This document shows positions 17,931 through 30,132 of a stretch of DNA of 64,000 nucleotides, one piece after another (the stretch's first letter is position 1; the number at the start of each line of letters is the position of its first letter). Below the pieces are notes generated by a model. It did no database searches and was not told the origin of the DNA. It was given only the letters and a program-made list of their open reading frames with translations. Origin of the DNA: Streptomyces sp. NBC_00775 (GTDB lineage: Bacteria; Actinomycetota; Actinomycetes; Streptomycetales; Streptomycetaceae); contig NZ_CP108938.1 of the NCBI RefSeq assembly GCF_036347135.1, positions 6,696,001 through 6,760,000 on the forward strand, read 5' to 3'. The translations under genes and the position numbers were made by a program.

Positions 17931-18209
17931 ATGGCCATCGAGGTCCGCATCCCCACCATCCTCCGCACCTACACCGGTGGCGAGAAGGCCGTCGAGGGCG
18001 GCGGCGCGACCCTCGCCGAGCTCTTCGCCGACCTCGAGACCCGGCACGCGGGCATCCAGGCCCGCATCGTGGACAACGGCGAGCTGCGCCGCTTCGTCAA
18101 CGTCTACCTGAACGACGAGGACGTCCGCTTCCTCGACGGCATCAACACCAAGCTGACCGACGGCGACAGCGTCACGATCCTGCCGGCCGTCGCCGGCGGC
18201 ATGTTCTGA
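17931..18209 (+). CDS. cysO: Sulfur-carrier protein CysO (MoaD/ThiS family)
   Basis: 92 residues, ubiquitin-like fold. The sequence IPTILRTYTGGEKAVEG and FVNVYLNDEDVRFLDG closely follows M. tuberculosis CysO. The usual C-terminal diglycine (Gly89-Gly90 in AVAGG) is followed by Met91-Phe92, so the protein must be trimmed before the C-terminal glycine can be activated as a thiocarboxylate. The ribosome site AGGAG lies just before ATG 17931. CysO carries sulfide to CysM for cysteine synthesis; mec upstream and cysM 17 bp downstream complete the pathway. Confidence 0.93.
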   Translation: MAIEVRIPTILRTYTGGEKAVEGGGATLAELFADLETRHAGIQARIVDNGELRRFVNVYLNDEDVRFLDGINTKLTDGDSVTILPAVAGGMF

Positions 18210-18220
18210 TCGGCTGCTGA

Positions 18221-19177
<957 letters not shown>

Positions 19178-19242
19178 GGGCTCCAGCGGCCTTTCCTTCG
19201 CGTTCGGTTGTGTGTCGGGTGCGGGTGGGTGGGGGCTGGTGC

Positions 19243-19301
19243 AAAAGATTGCGCAGTTCCCCGCGCCCCTAAAAGGGGCGCGGGGAACTGCGCAATCTTT
19301 T
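19243..19301. terminator. Very long perfect hairpin (28-bp stem) between cysM and the PemK gene
   Basis: Bases 19243-19270 pair perfectly with 19274-19301 around an AAA loop. The core CCCCGCGCCCCT and its complement belong to the intergenic family found many times in Streptomyces chromosomes. AAAA at one end and TTTT at the other make it a bidirectional terminator for the convergent cysM and PemK-domain genes. Confidence 0.85.
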
Positions 19302-19318
19302 AGCGGGGGTCTGGGGGC

Positions 19319-19777
19319 TCAGCCCGCCAGGTAGCGGACCTGGTCCCACAGCACCGGGTCCACCACGCCCACCCTCCGCCGGAAGTCCCACACGGGCATC
19401 ACCCGCAGTTCGTCCGTCTCAAGGAAGCTGGCCCGCCCGTGGGCATCCCCCACGGCACCCGGCGGCAGCGGAATCACCCCGGCCCGCTCATCGTGGTACT
19501 TGCTGGTGATCTTCGCGACGGTCACCCGATCCCCCCGCACCGCGAGCACCAGACACGGCCGGTCCTTACCCCCGGGCCCGTCCTCGTAGGGCACGTTCGC
19601 CCACCAGATCTCCGCGGGGCGAGGCCGCGGCGCCCCCCGCCGACGCCCACCCGCCCGCCCCGGCGGACGCGTACGCCCAGCCGGCCGGCGCCCACGGCGC
19701 CCCCAGCCGTCCACCAGCGTCGCGACCAGCGCGAGCAGCACCACCGCCGCGAGCGCGAGCCACCAGGACGTGTCCAT
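19319..19777 (-). CDS. Membrane-anchored PemK/MazF-like domain protein
   Basis: 152 residues from ATG 19777. An N-terminal helix (SWWLALAAVVLLALVATLVDG) is followed by a basic Arg/Pro/Gly linker and a PemK-like domain: PAEIWWANVPYEDGPGGKDRPCLVLA, VAKITSKYHDERAGVIPLP and LETDELRVMPVWDFRRRVG. PemK/MazF toxins are mRNA endoribonucleases, normally soluble and paired with an antitoxin. Here the domain is tethered to the membrane and no antitoxin gene is adjacent, so toxin activity is doubtful. Confidence 0.7.
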   Translation of the reverse strand: MDTSWWLALAAVVLLALVATLVDGWGRRGRRPAGRTRPPGRAGGRRRGAPRPRPAEIWWANVPYEDGPGGKDRPCLVLAVRGDRVTVAKITSKYHDERAGVIPLPPGAVGDAHGRASFLETDELRVMPVWDFRRRVGVVDPVLWDQVRYLAG

Positions 19778-20037
19778 ACCGAAGAAGGTACCGGCGCGTA
19801 TCCCCGCTCGCCCCCCGCCCCGAAGGACCCGCGCGGGTCCGGCCCACCTCATGTCCATCCGAACCGGTGACAGCACAGGTGAGTTCGCCCACAACGGCCC
19901 CTGGCGGAGGAGCGACCGGCCCTTTTGCGCCTTACGCTCGACGGACCGCACGACCCCCGTTCCCGTATCTGCATCCGAGTATCTGCACCCCGCATCTACT
20001 CTCTGCACTTCCTGCCAGCGCGGAGGTTCCAGCTCAT

Positions 20038-20790
20038 ATGAAGCTCACCGTCGTCGGCTGCTCGGGGTCGTTCCCGTCCGCGGAATCGGCCTGTTCGAGC
20101 TACCTCGTAGAGGCCGACGGCTTCCGGCTGCTTCTCGACATGGGCAACGGTGCCCTTGGCGAGCTGCAGCGCCACTGCGGTCTCTACGACCTCGACGCGA
20201 TCTTCCTCAGCCATCTGCACGCCGACCACTGCATCGACATGTGCGCGTACTTCGTCGCGCGCTACTACCGCCATGACGGCGGCCGCTGCGCCCCCATCCC
20301 GGTCTACGGCCCCGAGGGCACCGAACAGCGCCTGACCACCGCGTACGCCGACACGCCGTCCGCCTCCTCGATGAGCGAGGTCTTCGACTTTCACACCGTC
20401 AAGCCGGGCACGTTCGACATCGGCCCGTTCACCGTGCACACGGAGCGGGTGCGCCACCCCGTGGAGGCGTACGGCATCCGAGTGGAGCACGAGGGCAGGT
20501 CCCTCACGTACTCCGGGGACACGGGCGTGACCGAGGCCCTGGACGAACTCGCCCGCGACACGGACCTGTTCCTGTGCGAGGCGGCGTTCACCCATGGCAA
20601 GGAGAACATCCCCGACCTCCACCTCAACGGCCGCGAGGCAGGCGAGACCGCCACCCGCGCCGGCGCCCGCCGCCTCCTGCTCACCCACATCCCGCCGTGG
20701 ACGGACCCCCAGATCAACCTGGAGGACGCGCGTGCGGTGTACGCGGGTCCGGCGGAACTGGCGATGCCCCGGCTGTCGTACGAGATCTAG
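20038..20790 (+). CDS. MBL-fold hydrolase, Rv1339-like (probable cyclic-nucleotide phosphodiesterase)
   Basis: 250 residues, GGAGG at 20023-20027 before ATG 20038. The metal motif is HLHADH at residues 59-64, with later RHPVEAYGIRVEH, LTYSGDTG and LLTHIPPW ligands. The family includes RNase Z and class II phosphodiesterases. Synteny (between cysM and rph/rdgB) makes it the counterpart of M. tuberculosis Rv1339, an atypical class II cAMP phosphodiesterase. It ends at a terminator shared with the convergent glycocin-like operon. Confidence 0.82.
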   Translation: MKLTVVGCSGSFPSAESACSSYLVEADGFRLLLDMGNGALGELQRHCGLYDLDAIFLSHLHADHCIDMCAYFVARYYRHDGGRCAPIPVYGPEGTEQRLTTAYADTPSASSMSEVFDFHTVKPGTFDIGPFTVHTERVRHPVEAYGIRVEHEGRSLTYSGDTGVTEALDELARDTDLFLCEAAFTHGKENIPDLHLNGREAGETATRAGARRLLLTHIPPWTDPQINLEDARAVYAGPAELAMPRLSYEI

Positions 20791-20806
20791 AGCCCGTACG
20801 CAGGAC

Positions 20807-20840
20807 AAGGCCCCCGGAACCCATCGGTTCCGGGGGCCTT
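20807..20840. terminator. Bidirectional terminator between the MBL gene and the glycosyltransferase
   Basis: AAGGCCCCCGGAAC (20807-20820) pairs perfectly with 20827-20840 across a 6-nt loop. It serves the MBL gene on the plus strand and the glycocin-like operon on the minus strand. Confidence 0.8.
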
Positions 20841-20856
20841 CGCGCCGCCGGGGCCC

Positions 20857-22158
20857 CTATCGGGCGCTGTCCCGTACGCCGGGCAGTACACGCGCCAGCA
20901 TCTCGAAGTCCTCGGTCACGCTCTCCCCGGCACCGCGGGCGACGGCCTTGCGGTAGGCGGGTGCGACCGTCTCGTATCTGCCGCTGGCGAGGGCGAGCGT
21001 CGACTGGAGTTCGAACAGCCTGGCCATGAGATGGCTGTTGCCCGGCTCCTCGTCCGGCTCGACCGCGGCGACCGCGTCGACGAGTGCGGAGAGACGGCCG
21101 AGGAGCCGGCTGGACTCCATGACGGTGCGGTAGTACGTGGCTTCCACCGTCCGTCCGGCCTCGGCGAGCCGGGCGGCGTACCGCACGATGTGGTCCGCCC
21201 CGCCGAAGCGGAGGGCCAGCTCGCACAGCAGGATCCACGCGTCGACGATGCGCTCCGCCCGGTAGTCGGGTGCCCCGGCCACCGGCTCGGCGACGGTCGC
21301 CTCCACCCGGGCGAAGGAAGTCATCAGCTCCTCCCCGGACGCCGTCCGGTAGTCCACGGTGTCGCGCACCTCGTAGTAGACCCACTTCGGGTTGTCCGGC
21401 TCCTCGTCGCGGCACAGCCGGCTCAACCTGCCGTACAGATCCCGCTTTCCGCGCTTCTCGATCACCTCCGGCAGGTATCCCGAATGGTCGAGGCGGGCGT
21501 CGATCTGGACGCGGGCCGGGGCGTTGCCCGCGTCGTCGTAGGGATGTTCGTGAACCCGCCCCCGGAAGCGGAAGGGGCCACCGGCCCGAAGGACGCGTTG
21601 GGTGTTGGTGTACGTCGGCCCCTCGACGTCGACGATGGCGGGGGACACGACGAAGTCGGCGGCCGGCAGGAGGAAGTCGAGGAGGCCGAGGGCACGCCTG
21701 AATCTGCCCGCGTGCTCCGGCCGGAGGACCTCGTCCGCGTCCACGTAGACGATCCAGCCCTCCGTGATGTGCTGAAGGGCGAGATTCCGGTGGTGGGAGA
21801 AGTCGTCGACCCACGGCGCGGACAGCACCCGCACGTCACCGAGGGCCGCGCGGGCCCGCTCCACCGTGGCGTCGGTGGACCCGGAGTCGATCAGCAGGCA
21901 GTGGTCGATGTCCTGGGCGAGTGCCGTGAGGCAGCGCGCGATGCCGTCCTCCTCGTCACGGGTGAGGACCGCGGCGGTGACCGGTGCGGGGCGGTGGCGT
22001 TCATAGCGCGCCGCCAGTTCGACCGGGTCCGGCGAAGGGAGCCGCGCCGCCGCCAGGTCCATCGACACGGTGGTGACCAGGGCCAGATCGGACGCGAGCC
22101 GGGACGGGGGGAGGCCGTCGGGTGTGCGGGCGAGATCCAGCAGTTCCGCGAACTTCAT
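20857..22158 (-). CDS. SunS-like family 2 glycosyltransferase (candidate peptide S-glycosyltransferase)
   Basis: 433 residues. Residues ~58-230 form a GT-A domain: AAVLTRDEEDGIARCL, LLIDSGSTDATVE (91-96 DSGSTD), WVDDFSHHRNLAL (116-128) and the metal site DADE at 140-143. The C-terminal ~200 residues are helical and TPR-like (ILLCELALRFGG, LFELQSTLALASGRYETV). This layout is that of SunS, the sublancin S-glycosyltransferase, and related GT2 enzymes. An S/O-HexNAc transferase of this kind has been reported from S. venezuelae. It is the last gene of a three-gene operon whose first gene encodes a small Cys-containing precursor, so peptide glycosylation is the likely role. Confidence 0.78.
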   Translation of the reverse strand: MKFAELLDLARTPDGLPPSRLASDLALVTTVSMDLAAARLPSPDPVELAARYERHRPAPVTAAVLTRDEEDGIARCLTALAQDIDHCLLIDSGSTDATVERARAALGDVRVLSAPWVDDFSHHRNLALQHITEGWIVYVDADEVLRPEHAGRFRRALGLLDFLLPAADFVVSPAIVDVEGPTYTNTQRVLRAGGPFRFRGRVHEHPYDDAGNAPARVQIDARLDHSGYLPEVIEKRGKRDLYGRLSRLCRDEEPDNPKWVYYEVRDTVDYRTASGEELMTSFARVEATVAEPVAGAPDYRAERIVDAWILLCELALRFGGADHIVRYAARLAEAGRTVEATYYRTVMESSRLLGRLSALVDAVAAVEPDEEPGNSHLMARLFELQSTLALASGRYETVAPAYRKAVARGAGESVTEDFEMLARVLPGVRDSAR

Positions 22159-22246
22159 CGTGTGGCGAGGTCTTTCTGGTCGAGTTCGGTCGGTGCGTGC
22201 TCGGATCGGTTCGTACTCGGGCGATGCGTGCTCAGTTGGTGCGTGC

Positions 22247-24334
22247 TCAGTCGATGGAGTGGCTCAGGTCGAACGTGACGTCCTGGACATGGCCGTGCGA
22301 GACCACGATCTTGGTCCCCTTCACGGTTCGGAGGTGACCCCAGACGCGGGTGAAGGTCTCGCGGTCGATGCCGCTGAACGACTCGTCGAAGAGATAGACC
22401 TGCGGGGCGTGCAGCACGGCGCGGGCTATCGAGAGCCGTTGGATCTGCCCCCGCGACAGGCCCGCACCCGTGTCCCGTACGGGTTCGTCGAGCCCTTCGG
22501 GGAGGGTTTCGAGGACTTCCAGGAAACAGGCGACGCGGCAGGCCTCGATGATGTCGGCCTCGTCGTGGGGGACGCCGAGTGTCAGGTTCTCGCGCAGGGA
22601 CGCGGTCAGCAGTACCGGGTTCTCCGGTACGTAGAGGACGCGGCGGCGCAGCTCGGACTCGCGGATCCGGCTGACTTCGGCGCCGCCCAGGGTGATGTTC
22701 CCGCGATAGCCGGAGTGCGTCCCGGCCAGGAGGGCGAGCAGGGTGCTCTTCCCCGATCCGTTCGCGCCCCGCAGCAGCACGCTCGTGCCGTGGGGGACAT
22801 CGAGGTCGCAGTCCGCGAGCGCGTCGCGCCCGGAGCCCTCGTAGGAGAAACGCAGCGATCTGACGGAGAGGTCGGCCGGTTCGAGCGGTGTCTGCGCTTC
22901 CGACTCCGGCAGTTCCTGACGGGCGTCGTCCCGCTGGAGGACCACGTCCCGATAGCGGCCGAGGGCGGCCGAGGTGCGCTGGACGGTGACCTGGAGGGAG
23001 GCGACGGAGTCCATGGAGCCGAGAAAGTAGCCGGACATGGTCAGAAAGCCGAAGACCTGACCGACGGTGAGTGAGCCGGAGAGCATTTGTGTCAGCCCCG
23101 CCCAGGCGACCACGATCGTGAAAACGCCCTGGTTGCCCGCCTTGATAACGGAGTTGAGATTCTCCAGGCGCCCCAAGCGTGTCTCCGATGCGACCCTGCG
23201 CCGCAGTGCCCGCGCCATCCGGTCGAAGGCGAATTCACGTTTTCCGTAACCGATCAGTTCGCTGTGCCCCTGCAGAATGGTGAGGGTCTCCGACTTCAGG
23301 GTGGCGTCGCGCTGAAGTGCTTCCTCCGCGGCATTCCGGATGTGCGGATAAAGGAGGAACGAGCTGAGCAGGTTGATCGCTGCGGGAGGCAGGAGGACCA
23401 GGAAAAGGATCGGGCTCGCCGCGAGAAGATAGATCCCGATGGACAGGACGACACCGATGTCGATGGCCGCTCGGACCGCGGCCGCGGTGACCAGTCCCTG
23501 GATTTCCTGCACATCGTCGAGCCGGCTCACCAGATCGCCGGCCCGTCGGCTCTTGAAATACGGGGCGGGAAGCCGGAGGAGTTTGTGCAGATAGCTTTCC
23601 GACAGTCGTCGTTGCAGCGACTGGCTCAGCGCGACGACGGCGCGGCCCCGCAGATACTGGACCGCTGCGGCCGACAGCGCCACGGCGATGAACTCGCCGG
23701 ACATGAGAGCGAGTTCGCGTCCGGAGCCGTCCCGCATGACGCGGTCCACCGCCATCTGCACGAACAGGCTGTTCAGCAGGGCCACCCCGGCGACGATCGC
23801 GGTCGTCGTGAGGATCAGGGCCAGATGTCCCCAGTGCTCACGCACCGTCTGCCGGAGGAACTGCTGCGCACGCGGCCGACGGATGCGTGCGGCCGGCGTC
23901 CGTCGCGCGGCCGGCCGGTCGGTGACCAGGGCCTCGCCGTGGAACACCGCGGCCAGCGTCTCGGCGGCGATGCGCATCGGACGGTGCAGCAAGGGGTCGC
24001 TGACGACGAAGTCACCGCCTTCGGTGACCTCGTGCACGACGACGAAGTGCCGAGAGCCCCCGTCTTCGTCCAGCAGGACGATCGCCGGCCCCGCCACGCG
24101 CAGGGCCTGCCCCAACTGGTCGGCGTCCAGTCGCAGAAGCGCGCTGTCGACGCCGTAGCCGGCCAGGACGTCGCGGAGCCGGAGGAGGTTCGAGCCGCGT
24201 TCGCCCAGTCCGACGGACTCACGCAGGATCGCCGCGTCGACCCGAGCCCCGTGCCGCAGCAGCACCGTGCGGACGGATGCGGGACCGCAGTCGGTGTCCC
24301 CCGACTGATGGGTGTGGAATCTCTGCCACTTCAA
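22247..24334 (-). CDS. Peptidase-containing ABC transporter (C39 protease-permease-ATPase)
   Basis: 695 residues from a TTG start at 24334, chosen because GGGGGAGA lies 8 nt upstream; longer frames run into the precursor gene. The N-terminal C39 cysteine protease has Gln10, Cys16 (SGDTDCGPAS), His96 (GGSRHFVVVHE) and Asp113. A six-helix membrane domain follows (for example LALILTTTAIVAGVALLNSLF), then the ATPase with Walker A GANGSGKST at ~523-531, signature LSRGQ and Walker B VYLFDESF. Such transporters cleave the leader of bacteriocin or RiPP precursors after a Gly-Gly-like site and export the mature peptide. Confidence 0.9.
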   Translation of the reverse strand: MKWQRFHTHQSGDTDCGPASVRTVLLRHGARVDAAILRESVGLGERGSNLLRLRDVLAGYGVDSALLRLDADQLGQALRVAGPAIVLLDEDGGSRHFVVVHEVTEGGDFVVSDPLLHRPMRIAAETLAAVFHGEALVTDRPAARRTPAARIRRPRAQQFLRQTVREHWGHLALILTTTAIVAGVALLNSLFVQMAVDRVMRDGSGRELALMSGEFIAVALSAAAVQYLRGRAVVALSQSLQRRLSESYLHKLLRLPAPYFKSRRAGDLVSRLDDVQEIQGLVTAAAVRAAIDIGVVLSIGIYLLAASPILFLVLLPPAAINLLSSFLLYPHIRNAAEEALQRDATLKSETLTILQGHSELIGYGKREFAFDRMARALRRRVASETRLGRLENLNSVIKAGNQGVFTIVVAWAGLTQMLSGSLTVGQVFGFLTMSGYFLGSMDSVASLQVTVQRTSAALGRYRDVVLQRDDARQELPESEAQTPLEPADLSVRSLRFSYEGSGRDALADCDLDVPHGTSVLLRGANGSGKSTLLALLAGTHSGYRGNITLGGAEVSRIRESELRRRVLYVPENPVLLTASLRENLTLGVPHDEADIIEACRVACFLEVLETLPEGLDEPVRDTGAGLSRGQIQRLSIARAVLHAPQVYLFDESFSGIDRETFTRVWGHLRTVKGTKIVVSHGHVQDVTFDLSHSID

Positions 24335-24364
24335 CGAAGGTCTCCCCCGACCGAGCGAAAGAAA

Positions 24365-24390
24365 GCGCCCGCCCCGGGAGGGGCGGGCGC
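24365..24390 (-). terminator. Attenuating hairpin between precursor and transporter genes
   Basis: GCGCCCGCCCC (24365-24375) pairs with 24380-24390 around a 4-nt loop. Read on the minus strand it is followed by CTTTCTTTC. Partial termination here would yield more precursor mRNA than transporter mRNA, a common bacteriocin-operon design. Confidence 0.65.
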
Positions 24391-24399
24391 CGATACCTA

Positions 24400-24591
24400 C
24401 TACAGCTTGTCGCAGCCCAGCGACTTCCAGAGCTTGTAGTAGTCCCCGTAGCTGCAGGAAAGCGGATTGCCGATCTGGGCGAAAATCCACTCGCACTGCG
24501 CGCGGCTCGGCTTGCCCTCACCGGAGGCGGCAGCCGCCTCCTCGTCGGTGAGAGCGGTGAACTGCATGTCACGAAGAGTCTGAAGGCTCAT
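24400..24591 (-). CDS. Glycocin-like precursor peptide
   Basis: 63 residues; ATG 24591 follows GGGGAAA, stop at 24400-24402. The N-terminal part (MSLQTLRDMQFTALTDEEAA) is an acidic leader ending AAASGEG, a small-residue site suitable for C39 cleavage. The core begins KPSRAQCEW and has exactly three cysteines: Cys33, Cys46 and Cys60. Two helices with aromatic residues (EWIFAQIGN and DYYKLWKSLG) flank the loop NPLSCSYG. The order resembles sublancin (mature start GLGKAQC), where helix cysteines are disulfide-bonded and a loop cysteine is glycosylated. By analogy Cys33-Cys60 may pair and Cys46 carry the sugar. First gene of the operon. Confidence 0.75.
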   Translation of the reverse strand: MSLQTLRDMQFTALTDEEAAAASGEGKPSRAQCEWIFAQIGNPLSCSYGDYYKLWKSLGCDKL

Positions 24592-24630
24592 CGAATTTCC
24601 CCACTGTGTTGGTCGTGGCCGTTTCCGGCT

Positions 24631-24646
24631 GTGGTCTAGACCGTAT
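24631..24646 (-). promoter_or_regulatory. DasR dre-like site upstream of the precursor gene
   Basis: GTGGTCTAGACCGTAT contains the perfect palindromic core GGTCTAGACC (24633-24642) of DasR-responsive elements (consensus close to ACTGGTCTAGACCAGT), but the flanking triplets match poorly (11 of 16 overall). It lies about 40 bp upstream of the precursor start, in a promoter-proximal position. Confidence 0.45.
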
Positions 24647-24784
24647 GAGGTGGGGAGAGGGGTGATCAAGGTCAACCGGTGGGTGATCATCCTCACCGTC
24701 AAGACCTCGAAAATTCTGGAACCCCGGGAGAGGTTTTGGACTGCGCTTCGGGCGGCGCGAGTTCTTTCGTCTCAGGTACGCCGA

Positions 24785-24815
24785 ATTCCCCGGACCGTCA
24801 TACGGTCCGGGGAAT
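24785..24815 (-). terminator. Hairpin downstream of nagE2
   Basis: ATTCCCCGGACCGT (24785-24798) pairs perfectly with 24802-24815 around a CAT loop. It lies about 65 bp beyond the nagE2 stop and insulates the PTS gene from the glycocin-like operon downstream on the same strand. Confidence 0.75.
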
Positions 24816-24825
24816 GTCTCGTCGC

Positions 24826-24861
24826 GTCGAGTGGTGAGTCGAGCGGTGAGTCGAGTGGTGA
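24826..24861 (+). repeat. 12-bp tandem repeat, three copies
   Basis: GTCGAGTGGTGA, GTCGAGCGGTGA and GTCGAGTGGTGA lie head to tail between the nagE2 stop and its terminator. Confidence 0.85.
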
Positions 24862-24879
24862 AGTGTCTTTCCCTGCGGC

Positions 24880-26148
<1,269 letters not shown>

Positions 26149-26233
26149 AACTTCCTCCAGGGGATCCCCCCGGCCGGAGGCTGGGGGAGGGCAAGGCGCC
26201 GCCCCCAGGGGGACAGGGGGGTTTGGGGGACGG

Positions 26234-26249
26234 CGTGGTCTACACCACT
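26234..26249 (-). promoter_or_regulatory. DasR binding site dre 1 of nagE2
   Basis: CGTGGTCTACACCACT is a near-palindrome matching the dre consensus, about 85 bp upstream of the nagE2 start. DasR represses PTS genes until glucosamine-6-phosphate accumulates. Confidence 0.8.
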
Positions 26250-26250
26250 C

Positions 26251-26266
26251 AGTGGTGTAGACCTGT
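26251..26266 (-). promoter_or_regulatory. DasR binding site dre 2 of nagE2
   Basis: AGTGGTGTAGACCTGT lies one base from dre 1, giving a tandem pair, as described for nagE2 in S. coelicolor. Confidence 0.78.
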
Positions 26267-26357
26267 TGTAGCACGGTGAAGGTGGGATAAGGAACCCGCG
26301 AATTCTGTGGGCTCGGCCATAGCCGGAAGAAGAGGACGGAAGTGGTTGCAGTCGTGA

Positions 26358-26395
26358 CGAAGGGCCCCCGGACCGGATGGTCCGAGGGCCCTTCG
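26358..26395 (-). terminator. Hairpin terminator after nagE1
   Basis: A 17-bp stem with one mismatch (26358-26374 with 26379-26395) lies 22 bp beyond the nagE1 stop on the minus strand, separating the two EIIC genes into independent transcripts. Confidence 0.75.
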
Positions 26396-26416
26396 TGAAG
26401 ACGGGAGCCGCAGGGC

Positions 26417-27706
26417 TTACGCCTTGGTGATGTCCTCCACCTCGTCCTCCGGCTCCCGCCCCGGAGTCTTGAGGTCGAACTTGGTGATCGCGAAGCGGAA
26501 GATCACGTAGTACACGACCGCGAAGCACAACCCGATCGGGATGATCGCCCAGGGCTTGGTCGCCAGGTTCCAGTTGATGACGTAGTCGATCAGACCCGCC
26601 GAGAAACTGAAGCCGTCATGCACACCGAGCCCCCAAGTCACCGCCATGGAAACGCCGGTGAGGACCGCGTGGATCACGTACAGCACCGGCGCGATGAACA
26701 GGAAGGAGTACTCGATCGGTTCGGTGATGCCCGTGACGAACGAGGTCAGTGCGACGGAGAGCATCATGCCGCCCACCTCCTTGCGGCGATGGGGCTTCGC
26801 ACAGTGCGCCATCGCCAGCGCGGCGGCCGGCAGCGCGAACATCATGATGGGGAAGAACCCGGAGGTGAACTGCCCCGCGTTCGGGTCACCCGCCAGGAAC
26901 ATGTTGATGTCACCGTGCACGACCTGACCGTCCGGCTTGGTGAAGCTGCCGAACTGGAACCAGATGGGCACGTTCAGGAACTGGTGCAGGCCGATCACCA
27001 GCAACGCCCGGTTGGCCACCCCGAAGACACCCGCACCCCACGAGCCCAGACTCACCAGCCAGTCGCTGAAGGTCTCCAGACCGTCACCGATCGGCGGCCA
27101 GACCCACAGACACAGCACGGCGAACACGATGGCCACGAACGACATGATGATCGGCACCAGCCGGCGCCCATTGAAGAAGCCGAGCCAGTCCACCAGCTTC
27201 GTACGGTGGAAGCGCTGCCAGAAGTACGCGGTCAGCAGCCCCATGATGATGCCGCCGAAGACACCCGGGTTCTGGTACGTGAACCCCACCACGGACTGGT
27301 CGGGCGCCTGGCAGCCGATGTTCTGGATGACCTTCGCCTGCTGCGCGCACTTCTCCGGGAACTGGTGCAGCACGCCGAGGTAGACGAGGAACCCCGCGAC
27401 CGCCGCGAGCGCCGTCGACCCGTCCGCCTTCTTCGCCATGCCGATGGACACACCCACGCAGAACAGCAGCGGCAGCCCGAGCTCGCCGTCCAGCAGGGCG
27501 CCGCCGGCCCCCTTCATCACCTTGGAGAGGCTGTCCCAGCCGAGCCCGTCCGGCCCGAACACATCCGGCTGGCCGAGCCGGTTGAGGATGCCCGCCGCCG
27601 GCAGCACCGCGATGGGGAGCTGAAGGCTGCGCCCCATCTTCTGCAGGCCCTGGAACAGGTTGTTCCAGCGGACCCTCGCGGGCGCGGCGGCGCTGTCGGC
27701 ACTCAT
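26417..27706 (-). CDS. nagE1: PTS sugar permease EIIC component (NagE1-type paralogue)
   Basis: 429 residues from ATG 27706 (MSADSAAAPARVRWNN), GGAGG upstream. It is about as long as NagE2 and shares its blocks: LPIAVLPAAGILNRLG, LLFCVGVSIGMAKKADGSTALAAVAG, FLNVPIWFQFGSF and VTGITEPIEYSFLFIAPVLY. It differs by an extra loop with three cysteines or more (EKCAQQAKVIQNIGCQAPDQ). In S. coelicolor this paralogue is dispensable for GlcNAc uptake, so its substrate is uncertain. It is divergent from nagF, sharing the dre site at 27747. Confidence 0.85.
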   Translation of the reverse strand: MSADSAAAPARVRWNNLFQGLQKMGRSLQLPIAVLPAAGILNRLGQPDVFGPDGLGWDSLSKVMKGAGGALLDGELGLPLLFCVGVSIGMAKKADGSTALAAVAGFLVYLGVLHQFPEKCAQQAKVIQNIGCQAPDQSVVGFTYQNPGVFGGIIMGLLTAYFWQRFHRTKLVDWLGFFNGRRLVPIIMSFVAIVFAVLCLWVWPPIGDGLETFSDWLVSLGSWGAGVFGVANRALLVIGLHQFLNVPIWFQFGSFTKPDGQVVHGDINMFLAGDPNAGQFTSGFFPIMMFALPAAALAMAHCAKPHRRKEVGGMMLSVALTSFVTGITEPIEYSFLFIAPVLYVIHAVLTGVSMAVTWGLGVHDGFSFSAGLIDYVINWNLATKPWAIIPIGLCFAVVYYVIFRFAITKFDLKTPGREPEDEVEDITKA

Positions 27707-27746
27707 GGGCGTCCTCCGGGCGGGCCGGTTTGGCGACGGCCCGCCA

Positions 27747-27762
27747 ACTGGTGTAGACCAGT
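27747..27762. promoter_or_regulatory. DasR dre site in the nagE1-nagF divergent promoter
   Basis: ACTGGTGTAGACCAGT is a textbook dre palindrome; the dyad extends to 13 bp per arm with flanking CGCCA/TGGCG (27742-27767). It lies 41 bp upstream of nagE1 and 118 bp upstream of nagF and could control both. Confidence 0.85.
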
Positions 27763-27879
27763 TGGCGACCGGTCGTCCTGTCGTGATCGCCATCATTCGG
27801 CACGTACGACATGACCGCTCGCAAAGATGGGCCAACTGTGGGTTACTGCGACAAAGCGGTTCGGATCAGGGAGTAGGAC

Positions 27880-28113
27880 ATGGCCACCAAGGCTGAGAAG
27901 ATCGTCGCCGGGCTCGGCGGCATCGACAACATCGAAGAGGTCGAGGGCTGCATCACCCGCCTCCGCACCGAGGTCCACGACGCCAGCAAGGTCGACGAGG
28001 CCGCCCTGAAGGCCGCCGGCGCCCACGGCGTCGTCAAGATGGGCACCGCGATCCAGGTCGTCATCGGCACCGACGCGGACCCGATCGCGGGCGAGATCGA
28101 AGACATGATGTGA
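27880..28113 (+). CDS. nagF: PTS EIIB component for GlcNAc
   Basis: 77 residues. The phosphocysteine is Cys24 in EEVEGCITRLRTEV, the standard glucose-family EIIB motif, and the C-terminal half is GVVKMGTAIQVVIGTDAD. It transfers phosphate from EIIA to the sugar bound by the EIIC permease; here EIIB is a separate polypeptide. AGGGAG precedes ATG 27880. A small hairpin at 28118-28137 follows the stop. Confidence 0.9.
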   Translation: MATKAEKIVAGLGGIDNIEEVEGCITRLRTEVHDASKVDEAALKAAGAHGVVKMGTAIQVVIGTDADPIAGEIEDMM

Positions 28114-28207
28114 GCGCCAGGGCTCCGCAGAGCCCTGCCTCACCCCTGAGGGGCTGCTTCCGTAACCGGCGGCAGCCCTTCACCCGTATACGGCTAGGCT
28201 CATCGCC

Positions 28208-28942
28208 ATGTCTCGAATCGACGGCCGCACCCCCGAACAGCTGCGCCCCATCACCATCCAGCGTGGCTGGAGCAAGCACGCCGAGGGCTCCGTCCTCGTC
28301 TCCTTCGGCGACACCAAGGTCTTCTGCACCGCCTCCGTCACCGAAGGCGTCCCGCGCTGGCGCAAGGGCAGCGGCGAGGGCTGGGTCACCGCCGAGTACT
28401 CCATGCTTCCCCGCGCCACCAACACCCGCGGAGACCGTGAGTCGGTCCGCGGCAAGATCGGCGGCCGCACGCACGAGATCAGCCGCCTCATTGGCCGCTC
28501 GCTGCGCGCCGTCATCGACTACAAGGCGCTCGGCGAGAACACCATCGTCCTCGACTGCGACGTCCTCCAGGCCGACGGCGGTACGCGCACGGCCGCGATC
28601 ACCGGCGCGTACGTCGCGCTCGCCGACGCCGTCACCTGGGCCCAGGGCAAGAAGCTGGTGAAGGCGGGCCGGCAGCCGCTGACCGGCACGGTGAGCGCCG
28701 TCTCCGTAGGAATCGTCGGCGGAGTCCCGCTCCTGGACCTCTGCTACGAGGAGGACGTGAAGGCCGACACCGACATGAACGTCGTCTGCACCGGCGACGG
28801 CCGCTTCGTCGAGGTCCAGGGCACGGCGGAGGCGGAGCCCTTCGACCGCAAGGAGCTCAACGCACTCCTCGACCTCGCCGTCACCGGCTGCGACGAACTC
28901 GCGGCCATCCAGCGCGCGGCCCTTGAGGCAACCGCCGGTTAA
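28208..28942 (+). CDS. rph: Ribonuclease PH
   Basis: 244 residues with full RNase PH features: [58 protein letters not shown] and [17 protein letters not shown]. It trims tRNA 3' ends phosphorolytically. It precedes a lipoprotein gene and rdgB on the same strand, as rph-rdgB does in many actinobacteria. Confidence 0.95.
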
Positions 28943-29084
28943 CCCTTCGCGTTCTATAGGGGTACGGGCGTACGGTCCAGCCGTGCGCCCGCCGACCACG
29001 TCACGGGCCGAGCCGACCGCACCACGGGTCGAGCCGCCCGTGCCACGGGTCGGCCACACCATGTCCACGGGGAGGGACCGTTCC

Positions 29085-29483
29085 ATGGCCGCGCGCCACC
29101 GCCATCGTCGCCGTACCGCCGCAATCGCCGTCGTCACCGCACTCGTCGCCCTGCCGGCGGCCGTCGGCTGCGACGCGGTCAACAAGGCGCTCGACTGCGT
29201 CCAGACCGCCGACTCGATCGCCGACAGCGTCACCGACCTCCAGCAGGCCGTCGAGAACGCGGCGAACGACCCGACGCAGACCGACGAGTCCCTCAACGCG
29301 ATAGAGAAGAACCTCGACAAGATCGGCGACAAGACCGACAACGCCGACGTCAACACGGCGGTCGACGACCTCAACAAGGCCGTCGGAAACGTCCGTACGG
29401 CCGTCAAGAACGGCGACAGCACCCCCGACATCAGCCCGGTGACGGACGCGGCGGGAGAGCTGACGAAGGTCTGCACGCCGTAG
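29085..29483 (+). CDS. Putative small lipoprotein or secreted protein
   Basis: 132 residues from ATG 29085, chosen for the GGGGAGGG site 8 nt upstream. An Arg/His-rich n-region (AARHRHRRR) and hydrophobic core (TAAIAVVTALVALPAAVGCD) lead to a Cys that could be lipidated, although AVGC is a weak lipobox. The mature part is helical and polar with an internal DLQQAVENAANDP and DDLNKAVGNVRTAVKNGD repeat. Function unknown. It sits between rph and rdgB. Confidence 0.65.
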   Translation: MAARHRHRRRTAAIAVVTALVALPAAVGCDAVNKALDCVQTADSIADSVTDLQQAVENAANDPTQTDESLNAIEKNLDKIGDKTDNADVNTAVDDLNKAVGNVRTAVKNGDSTPDISPVTDAAGELTKVCTP

Positions 29484-29529
29484 GAGCCGCCCGGCGGCTC
29501 GGGGATACCGGCTTGGGATACTGAGGACC

Positions 29530-30132
29530 ATGACCCGCCTGATCCTCGCCACCCGCAACGCCGGAAAGATCACCGAGCTGAAGGCGATCCTCGCCGACGC
29601 AGGTCTCACCCACGACCTCGTCGGCGCGGACGCCTACCCCGACATCCCCGACGTCAAGGAAACCGGCGTCACCTTCGCCGAGAACGCCTTGTTGAAGGCC
29701 CACGCCCTGGCTCAGGCCACGGGCCTCCCGGCCGTCGCCGACGACTCCGGCCTCTGCGTCGACGTCCTGAGCGGCGCCCCCGGCATCTTCTCCGCCCGCT
29801 GGGCGGGACGCCACGGGGACGACCGCGCGAACCTGGAACTGCTCCTGGCCCAGCTCTCCGACATCGACGACACACACCGGGGCGCCCACTTCGCATGCGC
29901 CGCCGCCCTGGCCCTGCCGGACGGCACGGAACGGGTGGTCGAGGGCCAGCTGAGGGGCGTACTGCGCCACACTCCCGTCGGCACGAACGGGTTCGGGTAC
30001 GACCCGATCCTGCAGCCGGAGGGGGAGACGCGGACCTGCGCGGAGCTGTCCGCCGAGGAGAAGAACGCGATCAGTCACCGGGGGAAGGCGTTCAGGGCGT
30101 TGGTGCCGGTGGTGCGGGAGTTGTTGGGCTGA
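29530..30132 (+). CDS. rdgB: XTP/dITP diphosphatase (RdgB/HAM1)
   Basis: 200 residues. Signature segments are LATRNAGKITELKAIL at the N terminus, FAENALLKAHALAQATGLPAVADDSGLCVD with the metal-binding Asp, SARWAG and TNGFGYDPILQPEG, SHRGKAFRAL. It hydrolyses non-canonical purine triphosphates, keeping them out of DNA. It is 46 bp after the lipoprotein gene and ends before a bidirectional terminator facing the tRNA. Confidence 0.95.
   Translation: MTRLILATRNAGKITELKAILADAGLTHDLVGADAYPDIPDVKETGVTFAENALLKAHALAQATGLPAVADDSGLCVDVLSGAPGIFSARWAGRHGDDRANLELLLAQLSDIDDTHRGAHFACAAALALPDGTERVVEGQLRGVLRHTPVGTNGFGYDPILQPEGETRTCAELSAEEKNAISHRGKAFRALVPVVRELLG

What the first reader, a model, noticed from the sequence alone, without database searches (positions are those of the whole stretch)
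20857..24591. Compact glycocin-like (S-glycosylated peptide) biosynthetic cassette
Three codirectional minus-strand genes encode a 63-residue Cys-containing precursor, a C39 protease-ABC exporter and a SunS-like family 2 glycosyltransferase, with hairpins at both ends. This is the minimal glycocin gene set. It sits inside a block otherwise conserved between Streptomyces and Mycobacterium (MBL gene on one side, nag PTS and rph/rdgB on the other), so it looks like an inserted cassette. Established: SunS-type enzymes glycosylate cysteine, and an S/O-HexNAc transferase has been reported from S. venezuelae. Inference: this cluster makes an exported glycopeptide that is new in sequence.
Basis: partly seen in the sequence, partly recalled or inferred. 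Interest (0 to 1): 0.92.

Follow-up and report, generated by a model that had tools for sequence, protein, structure and literature searches.

The report
Glycopeptide gene cassette beside sugar importer
A Streptomyces chromosome carries a small set of genes that probably makes, sugar-tags and exports a peptide antibiotic, and in most relatives found this set sits next to the gene for the kind of sugar importer that such peptides are thought to attack, which suggests what it targets and how its maker might protect itself.

Summary
A 63-aa precursor, a C39-ABC exporter and a SunS-type glycosyltransferase lie codirectionally at 24591-20857, bounded by hairpins. The enzyme scores 164 bits on TIGR04195 (next model 18; equivalog cut-off 350); its nearest solved relatives are 7msk and SunS. 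Related precursors align with sublancin at weak E-values: the outer Cys pair and a loop Cys match, the inner pair is missing, so this looks like a one-disulfide glycocin.

New here: (1) in 17 of 21 carriers found, the cassette lies at the GlcNAc-PTS permease locus (nagE1-nagE2), in three arrangements; 28 of 35 such loci without it have a 58-163 bp nagE2-MBL gap. (2) 12 of 16 scored precursor promoters carry a DasR-operator-like site, against 0 of 191 control upstreams. (3) NagE2 has two deep classes (12 switches by parsimony on a flank tree); own-type cassettes sit with class A in 10 of 10 loci, and their presence follows the NagE2 tree better than the flank tree. No SunI-like immunity gene was found. 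Best reading: a GlcNAc-regulated S-glycopeptide aimed at NagE2. Glycocin clusters in actinobacteria are already in print; the permease linkage was not seen in the searches made. No experiment was done.

The parts
24400..24591 (-). Precursor gene, 63 aa: predicted 26-aa leader ending GEG, predicted 37-aa core with Cys33, Cys46, Cys60
   Evidence: homologs; alignments; helix-loop-helix core predicted at low confidence
24454..24456 (-). Codon of Cys46, predicted S-glycosylation site (aligned with sublancin's loop Cys in GCGG)
   Evidence: lies in the predicted loop 41-47; inference, not shown
24630..24645 (-). DasR-operator (dre)-like palindrome TACGGTCTAGACCACA, starting 54 bp upstream of the precursor start
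   Evidence: TGGTCTAGACCR at only 3 places in the 11.1-Mb genome
24365..24390 (-). Hairpin between precursor and exporter (attenuator-like), 11-bp perfect stem
22247..24334 (-). C39 peptidase-ABC exporter (leader removal and export), 695 aa, TTG start
20857..22158 (-). SunS-type family 2 glycosyltransferase, 433 aa
20807..20840 (.). Perfect 15-bp inverted repeat between GT and the convergent MBL gene
24785..24815 (.). Perfect 14-bp inverted repeat after nagE2, before the cassette promoter
24880..26160 (-). nagE2, GlcNAc-type PTS EIIC permease, class A; proposed receptor and partner of the cassette
   Evidence: trees
26417..27706 (-). nagE1, second PTS EIIC gene
26234..26266 (-). Two dre sites (14/16 each) upstream of nagE2
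27747..27762 (-). dre site (15/16) upstream of nagE1
20038..20790 (+). MBL-fold gene on the other side of the insertion (flank, not part of the module)
   Evidence: empty site in loci without the cassette

Best explanation
The cassette makes a glycocin-type peptide. The GT links a sugar to Cys46 of the precursor in the cytoplasm; the C39 domain removes the leader after GEG; the ABC part exports the core; Cys33 and Cys60 then form one disulfide closing a helix-loop-helix with the sugar on the loop. In the nag-locus members the sugar is probably GlcNAc, and the peptide acts on the GlcNAc PTS permease NagE2 of competing streptomycetes, as the GlcNAc-bearing glycocin F is thought to act on a GlcNAc PTS and as sublancin activity is affected by a sugar PTS. 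DasR, the GlcNAc-responsive repressor, probably controls the promoter, so peptide and permease are induced together. With no recognised immunity gene, the linked NagE2 allele probably helps the producer tolerate its own peptide. Shown by sequence: gene set, family assignments, Cys correspondence, locus linkage, dre-like sites, NagE2 association. Inferred: sugar identity, disulfide, target, regulation, immunity.
For: SunS family and PDB hits. A relative's precursor hits only sublancin 2MIJ in the PDB (E 0.2); the 14-row profile ranks it first of 5 (E 0.014); all 8 homologs listed for the window precursor have E <= 2e-16. The precursor is conserved more than its enzymes (window vs L022: precursor 94%, GT 71%), which points to a selected product. 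Nag-locus placement in 17 of 21 carriers, three arrangements. dre matrix: 12 of 16 precursor upstreams above the 99% shuffle point, 0 of 191 control upstreams. Type I cassette with NagE2 class A in 10 of 10 loci (L004/L008 near-copies and the remnant L099 included), against 14 A and 19 B without cassette at that locus (Fisher p 0.001, not corrected for relatedness). Type I presence: 9 changes on the flank tree (163 of 300 shuffles as low), 5 on the NagE2 tree (0 of 300). In type I carriers GT tracks NagE2 (rho 0.84) but not MBL (0.22). Supported sister contrasts: window (A, carrier) with L060 (B, none); L004+L008 (A, carriers) with L075 (B, none). SunI, BdbA/B and three ASM1-plasmid accessory proteins find no match at E <= 1 in 21 stretches (20 relative loci and window 18000-30000). 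Glycocin F: a GlcNAc-specific PTS transporter is called the likely target, PMC5890784 (passages); a PTS affects glycocin F and sublancin activity, PMC6405829 (passages).
Against: No experiment. TIGR04195 score is below the equivalog cut-off; GT tree deep nodes unresolved. The sublancin match is weak; the precursor model is low confidence (pLDDT 69) and its PDB fold search gave no match at E <= 0.001. Four of 21 carriers are not at the nag locus. Type II cassettes occur with both NagE2 classes (4 B, 2 A). The dissociation of NagE2 from flanks rests mainly on L004/L008; among the 8 type I carriers with nagE1, GT also tracks NagE1 (0.83), and over all 10 the MoaD-like gene (0.77). The tree-corrected pair test of cassette against class is inconclusive (4 pairs, median p 0.5). 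Only one NagE2 position passed a carrier-specificity filter, in 7 of 8 carriers, so no clear immunity residue. dre-like sites are absent in L022, L025, L026 and L031; L007 was not scored there; all precursor sites score below the nagE1/nagE2 median of 25.4 (best 17.8, window 9.5); the L033 site lies in a region shared with divergent nagE2. The dre core motif is not enriched genome-wide (4 strand hits, reversed control 7).
Confidence: 0.58

Rival explanations
1. It is an ordinary glycocin whose nag-locus position is only a neutral insertion hot spot or an inherited old insertion; the target is unrelated to NagE2 and immunity is elsewhere.
For: Four of 21 carriers lie elsewhere; the nagE2-MBL gap also holds other ORFs in L065; GT correlates with other neighbours too. 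nagE2-MBL is a convergent gap, a tolerant place for insertions. NagE2 of class B loci is loosely tied to its flanks even without a cassette.
Against: One arrangement (L033) lies between nagE1 and nagE2, not in the gap, and L032/L102 are inverted; dre-like sites in 12 of 16 precursor upstreams; known glycocins are affected by sugar PTS.
Confidence: 0.28
2. The product is a self-acting or signalling glycopeptide: it modulates the producer's own GlcNAc uptake through NagE2 and so its development and antibiotic switch, rather than killing rivals.
For: dre-like promoter, permease linkage, no recognised immunity gene, strong conservation of the core in type I. NagE2 import is the first step of the GlcNAc signalling cascade in S. 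coelicolor (PMC4398421 passages).
Against: Patchy presence (13 of 392 genomes; 9 changes on the flank tree) is more like a bacteriocin; the nearest characterised relatives are antibacterial.
Confidence: 0.12
3. The glycosyltransferase modifies Ser/Thr rather than Cys, or glycosylates something else, and all three Cys serve other purposes.
For: In L033 the residue at the place of its near relative L032's loop Cys is Ser; an S/O-HexNAc transferase of an actinobacterium is in print (title only).
Against: A loop Cys is present in the other 13 of 14 rows and aligns with sublancin's loop Cys in most of them (shifted by one or two columns in L032).
Confidence: 0.12

Closest known systems
Sublancin 168 and SunA/SunT/SunS (phage SPbeta, NC_001884)
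   Same: Precursor, C39-ABC exporter, SunS-type GT; KAQC..W, loop GCGG and terminal Cys motifs in relatives' cores; hairpin after the precursor gene
   Different: No inner Cys pair; no match to SunI, BdbA or BdbB in the window stretch or relative loci; dre-like promoter and permease linkage; chromosomal, not in SPbeta
Glycocin F / ASM1 (plasmid pA1_ASM1, NZ_KU896918)
   Same: GT, ABC exporter, small Cys precursor; glycocin F thought to target a GlcNAc PTS
   Different: GT 25% identical; two thioredoxins and a LytTR regulator there, none matched here (thioredoxins; LytTR not searched); two nested disulfides and two sugars there
S/O-HexNAc transferase of an actinobacterium (Sharma et al. 2021, S. 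venezuelae SvGT from memory) and glycocin clusters beyond Firmicutes (Singh and Rao 2021)
   Same: Actinobacterial SunS-like enzymes and clusters; may include this family
7msk glycosyltransferase (thurandacin enzyme ThuS, named from memory)
   Same: Best PDB match of the GT (2e-43)
   Different: Its gene set and precursor were not compared here

Membership tests
Glycocin biosynthetic cluster | SunS-type peptide glycosyltransferase next to the precursor | tested here: met
   TIGR04195 4e-48, next model 0.0013; 7msk/7msn best in PDB
Glycocin biosynthetic cluster | C39 peptidase-ABC exporter | tested here: met
   PF03412, PF00664, PF00005 over cut-off
Glycocin biosynthetic cluster | Double-Gly-type leader | tested here: inconclusive
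   Leader ends GEG here, GG, GAG, AEG or similar in relatives; cleavage site is inferred
Glycocin biosynthetic cluster | Small core with disulfide-closed helix-loop-helix | tested here: inconclusive
   Cys pattern and low-confidence models fit; no PDB fold match
Glycocin biosynthetic cluster | Two nested disulfides (sublancin, glycocin F; a common, not a defining trait) | tested here: not met
   Only 3 Cys in the precursor
Glycocin biosynthetic cluster | Sugar on Cys/Ser/Thr of an antibacterial peptide | not testable with these tools
   needs MS and bioassay
SunS equivalog (TIGR04195) | Score over the curated cut-off (350 bits) | tested here: not met
   164.3 bits; 0 of 396 actinobacterial genomes searched reach it
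DasR regulon | dre operator at the promoter | tested here: inconclusive
   12/16 match, matrix score 9.5, above every control upstream (max -3.8) but below nagE1/nagE2 sites (14-15/16, median 25.4)
DasR regulon | Binding by DasR and response to GlcNAc | not testable with these tools
   needs EMSA/ChIP and RT-qPCR

The most novel reading that the evidence does not exclude
nagE2 and the cassette form one transferable weapon-and-target module: the peptide attacks NagE2 alleles of rivals, the linked allele protects the producer, and this arms race helps maintain the deep two-class NagE2 dimorphism that switches about 12 times across the Streptomyces loci sampled.
Probability: 0.22. Interest if true: 0.88.

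Novelty: new variant of a known kind. Interest (0 to 1): 0.68.

Why it matters
How glycocins act is unsettled: a PTS is involved, but the understanding of the mechanism is called far from complete (PMC6405829, passage). A family that mostly sits beside, and may travel with, the GlcNAc permease in genetically tractable Streptomyces gives a direct test of receptor and immunity. It would also tie bacteriocin-type warfare to the DasR/GlcNAc switch that controls Streptomyces antibiotics, give a simpler one-disulfide scaffold, and offer a reason for the NagE2 dimorphism seen here.

Tried and rejected
Rejected or unproductive: GT as cell-wall/LPS enzyme (SunS model far ahead). Compositional proof of insertion: cassette GC 68.3% vs window 69.2%, not informative; insertion rests on comparative loci. 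Carrier-specific NagE2 residues: one position passed the filter. Deep GT phylogeny unresolved, partly because two of my outgroup frames (L087, L089) were wrong or too distant and gave very long branches, and L080 had no match and fell out. PDB fold search of the precursor gave no match at E <= 0.001. Off-locus cassettes: no NagE-like gene within the fetched stretch; transposase genes near L101, and a borderline Tn3 match near L030. Phage and plasmid collections hold only relatives under 60% identity. A first tblastn run was cluttered by a wrong nagE1 frame and was redone. The viral-contig scans were not used. Another 356-genome search gave no new carrier.

Choices that bear on counts: comparison loci (40 stretches) were picked by me from 81 genomes, some for class A and some for class B, so class frequencies there are not a random sample. 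L052 and L071 are counted as 'none' at the nag locus although their genomes carry a cassette elsewhere. L005/L006 were dropped as duplicates of L023/L025, and L098 as a duplicate of L003, by equal contig length. L054, L055, L058, L059 are extra permease copies off the nag locus and fall out of flank trees. L004/L008, L027-L029 and L032/L102 are near-copies, so 12 of 16 dre-like sites are about 8 of 12 lineages. The dre shuffles were of single letters; 5000 random stretches of the same loci have a 95% point of -4.7 but a 99% point of 25.1, presumably because they include the nagE sites themselves. The 12 NagE2 switches are a parsimony count on a two-protein tree with 13 of 46 inner branches unsupported, and 8 of 300 label shuffles need as few.

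Full report
What is there. On the minus strand, 24591-20857, lie a 63-aa precursor gene, a C39-ABC exporter and a family 2 glycosyltransferase. The GT matches TIGR04195 (SunS) at 164 bits; the next model scores 18. The equivalog cut-off is 350 bits, so it is SunS-type, not a SunS equivalog. In the PDB the best matches are 7msk and SunS 7msn/7msp. Perfect inverted repeats lie at 24785-24815, 24365-24390 and 20807-20840. Flanks: nagE1/nagE2-type PTS EIIC, rph and rdgB on one side, an MBL gene on the other.

Precursor. The 8 homologs listed are Streptomyces proteins or come from unnamed sources. Aligned with diverged nag-locus and off-locus precursors (14 rows), the invariant residues are M1 S2 L3 L6 R7 of the leader and the first and last Cys of the core. 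A loop Cys is in 13 of 14 rows (in L032 shifted by one or two columns); in L033 it is Ser where near relative L032 has Cys. The precursor of L027 hits only sublancin in the PDB (E 0.2), and the 14-row profile puts sublancin first (E 0.014). In the alignment the outer Cys pair and the loop Cys match; sublancin's inner Cys pair has no counterpart. That the loop Cys is the glycosylated one and the others are disulfides in sublancin is recalled knowledge. AlphaFold2 models (pLDDT 64 and 69) give helices 30-40 and 48-57 with Cys46 in the loop; this is weak support, and the PDB fold search had no match at E <= 0.001.

Spread. 13 of 392 Streptomyces genomes, the window's own included, carry the GT at E <= 1e-15, 10 of 394 in a family-wide draw at E <= 1e-30 (overlapping sets, two from another genus), 8 of 356 near relatives, none new, and 6 named loci came from genome contigs. 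Without duplicates this is 21 carriers. In 17 the cassette is at the nag locus: nagE1-nagE2-cassette-MBL in own-type cassettes and in L027-L029 (no nagE1 match in L004 and L008); inverted in L032 and L102; between nagE1 and nagE2 in L033. L007's contig ends before nagE2, but its MBL side is the same; L099 keeps only the GT. Off-locus: G012, G036, G914, G924. In 28 of 35 nag loci without a cassette the nagE2-MBL gap is 58-163 bp; the other 7 have 207-2413 bp.

No companion genes. SunI, BdbA and BdbB of SPbeta and two thioredoxins and a hypothetical protein of pA1_ASM1 find no match at E <= 1 in window 18000-30000 and 20 relative loci. Between nagE2 and the precursor the minus-strand ORFs of 20 aa or more are a longer frame of the precursor itself and one that runs in from inside nagE2. 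An unrelated immunity gene elsewhere cannot be excluded.

Regulation. The DasR operator consensus A(G/C)TGGTCTAGACCA(G/C)T and the sites at S. coelicolor nagE1/nagE2 come from PMC4398421 (passages). A matrix from 100 nagE1/nagE2 upstream sites of these loci was applied to 130 bp upstream of precursors: 12 of 16 exceed the 99% point of shuffled upstreams (2.8), against 0 of 191 upstreams of MBL, CysM, MoaD-like, ABC and GT genes. The four below are L022, L025, L026 and the off-locus L031. The sites are weaker than those of nagE1/nagE2 (best 17.8 against a median of 25.4), and the L033 site lies in a stretch shared with divergent nagE2. The window site (24630-24645) scores 12/16; TGGTCTAGACCR is at only 3 places in the 11.1-Mb genome (4 strand hits), but the reversed control pattern has 7 hits, so the motif is not enriched genome-wide.

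NagE2. Both neighbours are PTS EIIC proteins closest to the GlcNAc model TIGR01998 (469 and 442 bits; cut-off 553 for the IIBC form). The permease beside MBL falls into two deep clades, which need 12 switches by parsimony on a CysM+MBL tree (8 of 300 shuffles as few). Own-type cassettes sit with class A in 10 of 10 loci (remnant L099 included), against 14 A and 19 B without a cassette there; type II: 4 B, 2 A. Type I presence needs 9 changes on the flank tree (163 of 300 shuffles as few) but 5 on the NagE2 tree (0 of 300); within class A alone, 7 (81 of 300) and 5 (5 of 300). In type I carriers GT distance tracks NagE2 (rho 0.84), not MBL (0.22) or CysM (0.37); in class A loci without cassette NagE2 tracks MBL (0.78), in carriers it does not (0.25). 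Against a simple reading: this contrast comes mainly from L004/L008; GT also tracks NagE1 (0.83, 8 rows without L004/L008) and the MoaD-like gene (0.77); and a tree-corrected pair test is inconclusive. NagE2 in class B loci is loosely tied to its flanks even without a cassette (0.23 and -0.11), so NagE2 recombines for reasons beyond the cassette.

Mechanism. [quoted passage not shown] The matching sugar logic, the placement beside the GlcNAc permease, the dre-like promoter and the lack of a recognised immunity gene make NagE2 the leading candidate for target and perhaps immunity. None of this is shown by experiment.

Novelty. Reference lists name Singh and Rao 2021 (glycocin clusters beyond Firmicutes) and, Sharma et al. 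2021 (S/O-HexNAc transferase in actinobacteria); neither paper is held. Searches with glycocin, bacteriocin or sublancin together with permease, nagE or DasR terms (2 of 2 listed; 15 of 68; 15 of 71; listings only) showed no title or abstract start that links the two. So: a new variant of a known kind, with a linkage that is unreported as far as these listings show.

Noticed in passing
nag loci L045-L049 and L062: NagE1 also has a divergent form (65-67% to the window's) that forms its own clade.
   Followed up: no
L033:6218-6430: Precursor with Ser where near relative L032 has the loop Cys; possible natural switch from S- to O-glycosylation.
   Followed up: partly
L099:9380-10609: Cassette remnant: only the GT was found beside class A nagE2, no precursor or exporter.
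   Followed up: partly
L065:4586-6588: Other ORFs (a permease-like and a stress-protein-like one, named by eye) occupy the nagE2-MBL gap in a genome without the cassette there.
   Followed up: no
G000:C1:672852-673250 (L001): A second, stronger C39 peptidase gene in the same genome, far from the window.
   Followed up: no
L107:2463-6176: SunS-like GT beside HlyD and C39 genes on a Photobacterium plasmid; glycocin-like set in a Gram-negative.
   Followed up: no
L080-L097: Weaker SunS-model matches in other actinobacterial families, many inside long open frames.
   Followed up: no
L100:12200-12388 and L030:6236-6424: Off-locus cassettes with a distinct core type (CGGTPxNY) in Streptomyces and in a genome of a second genus of the family.
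   Followed up: partly
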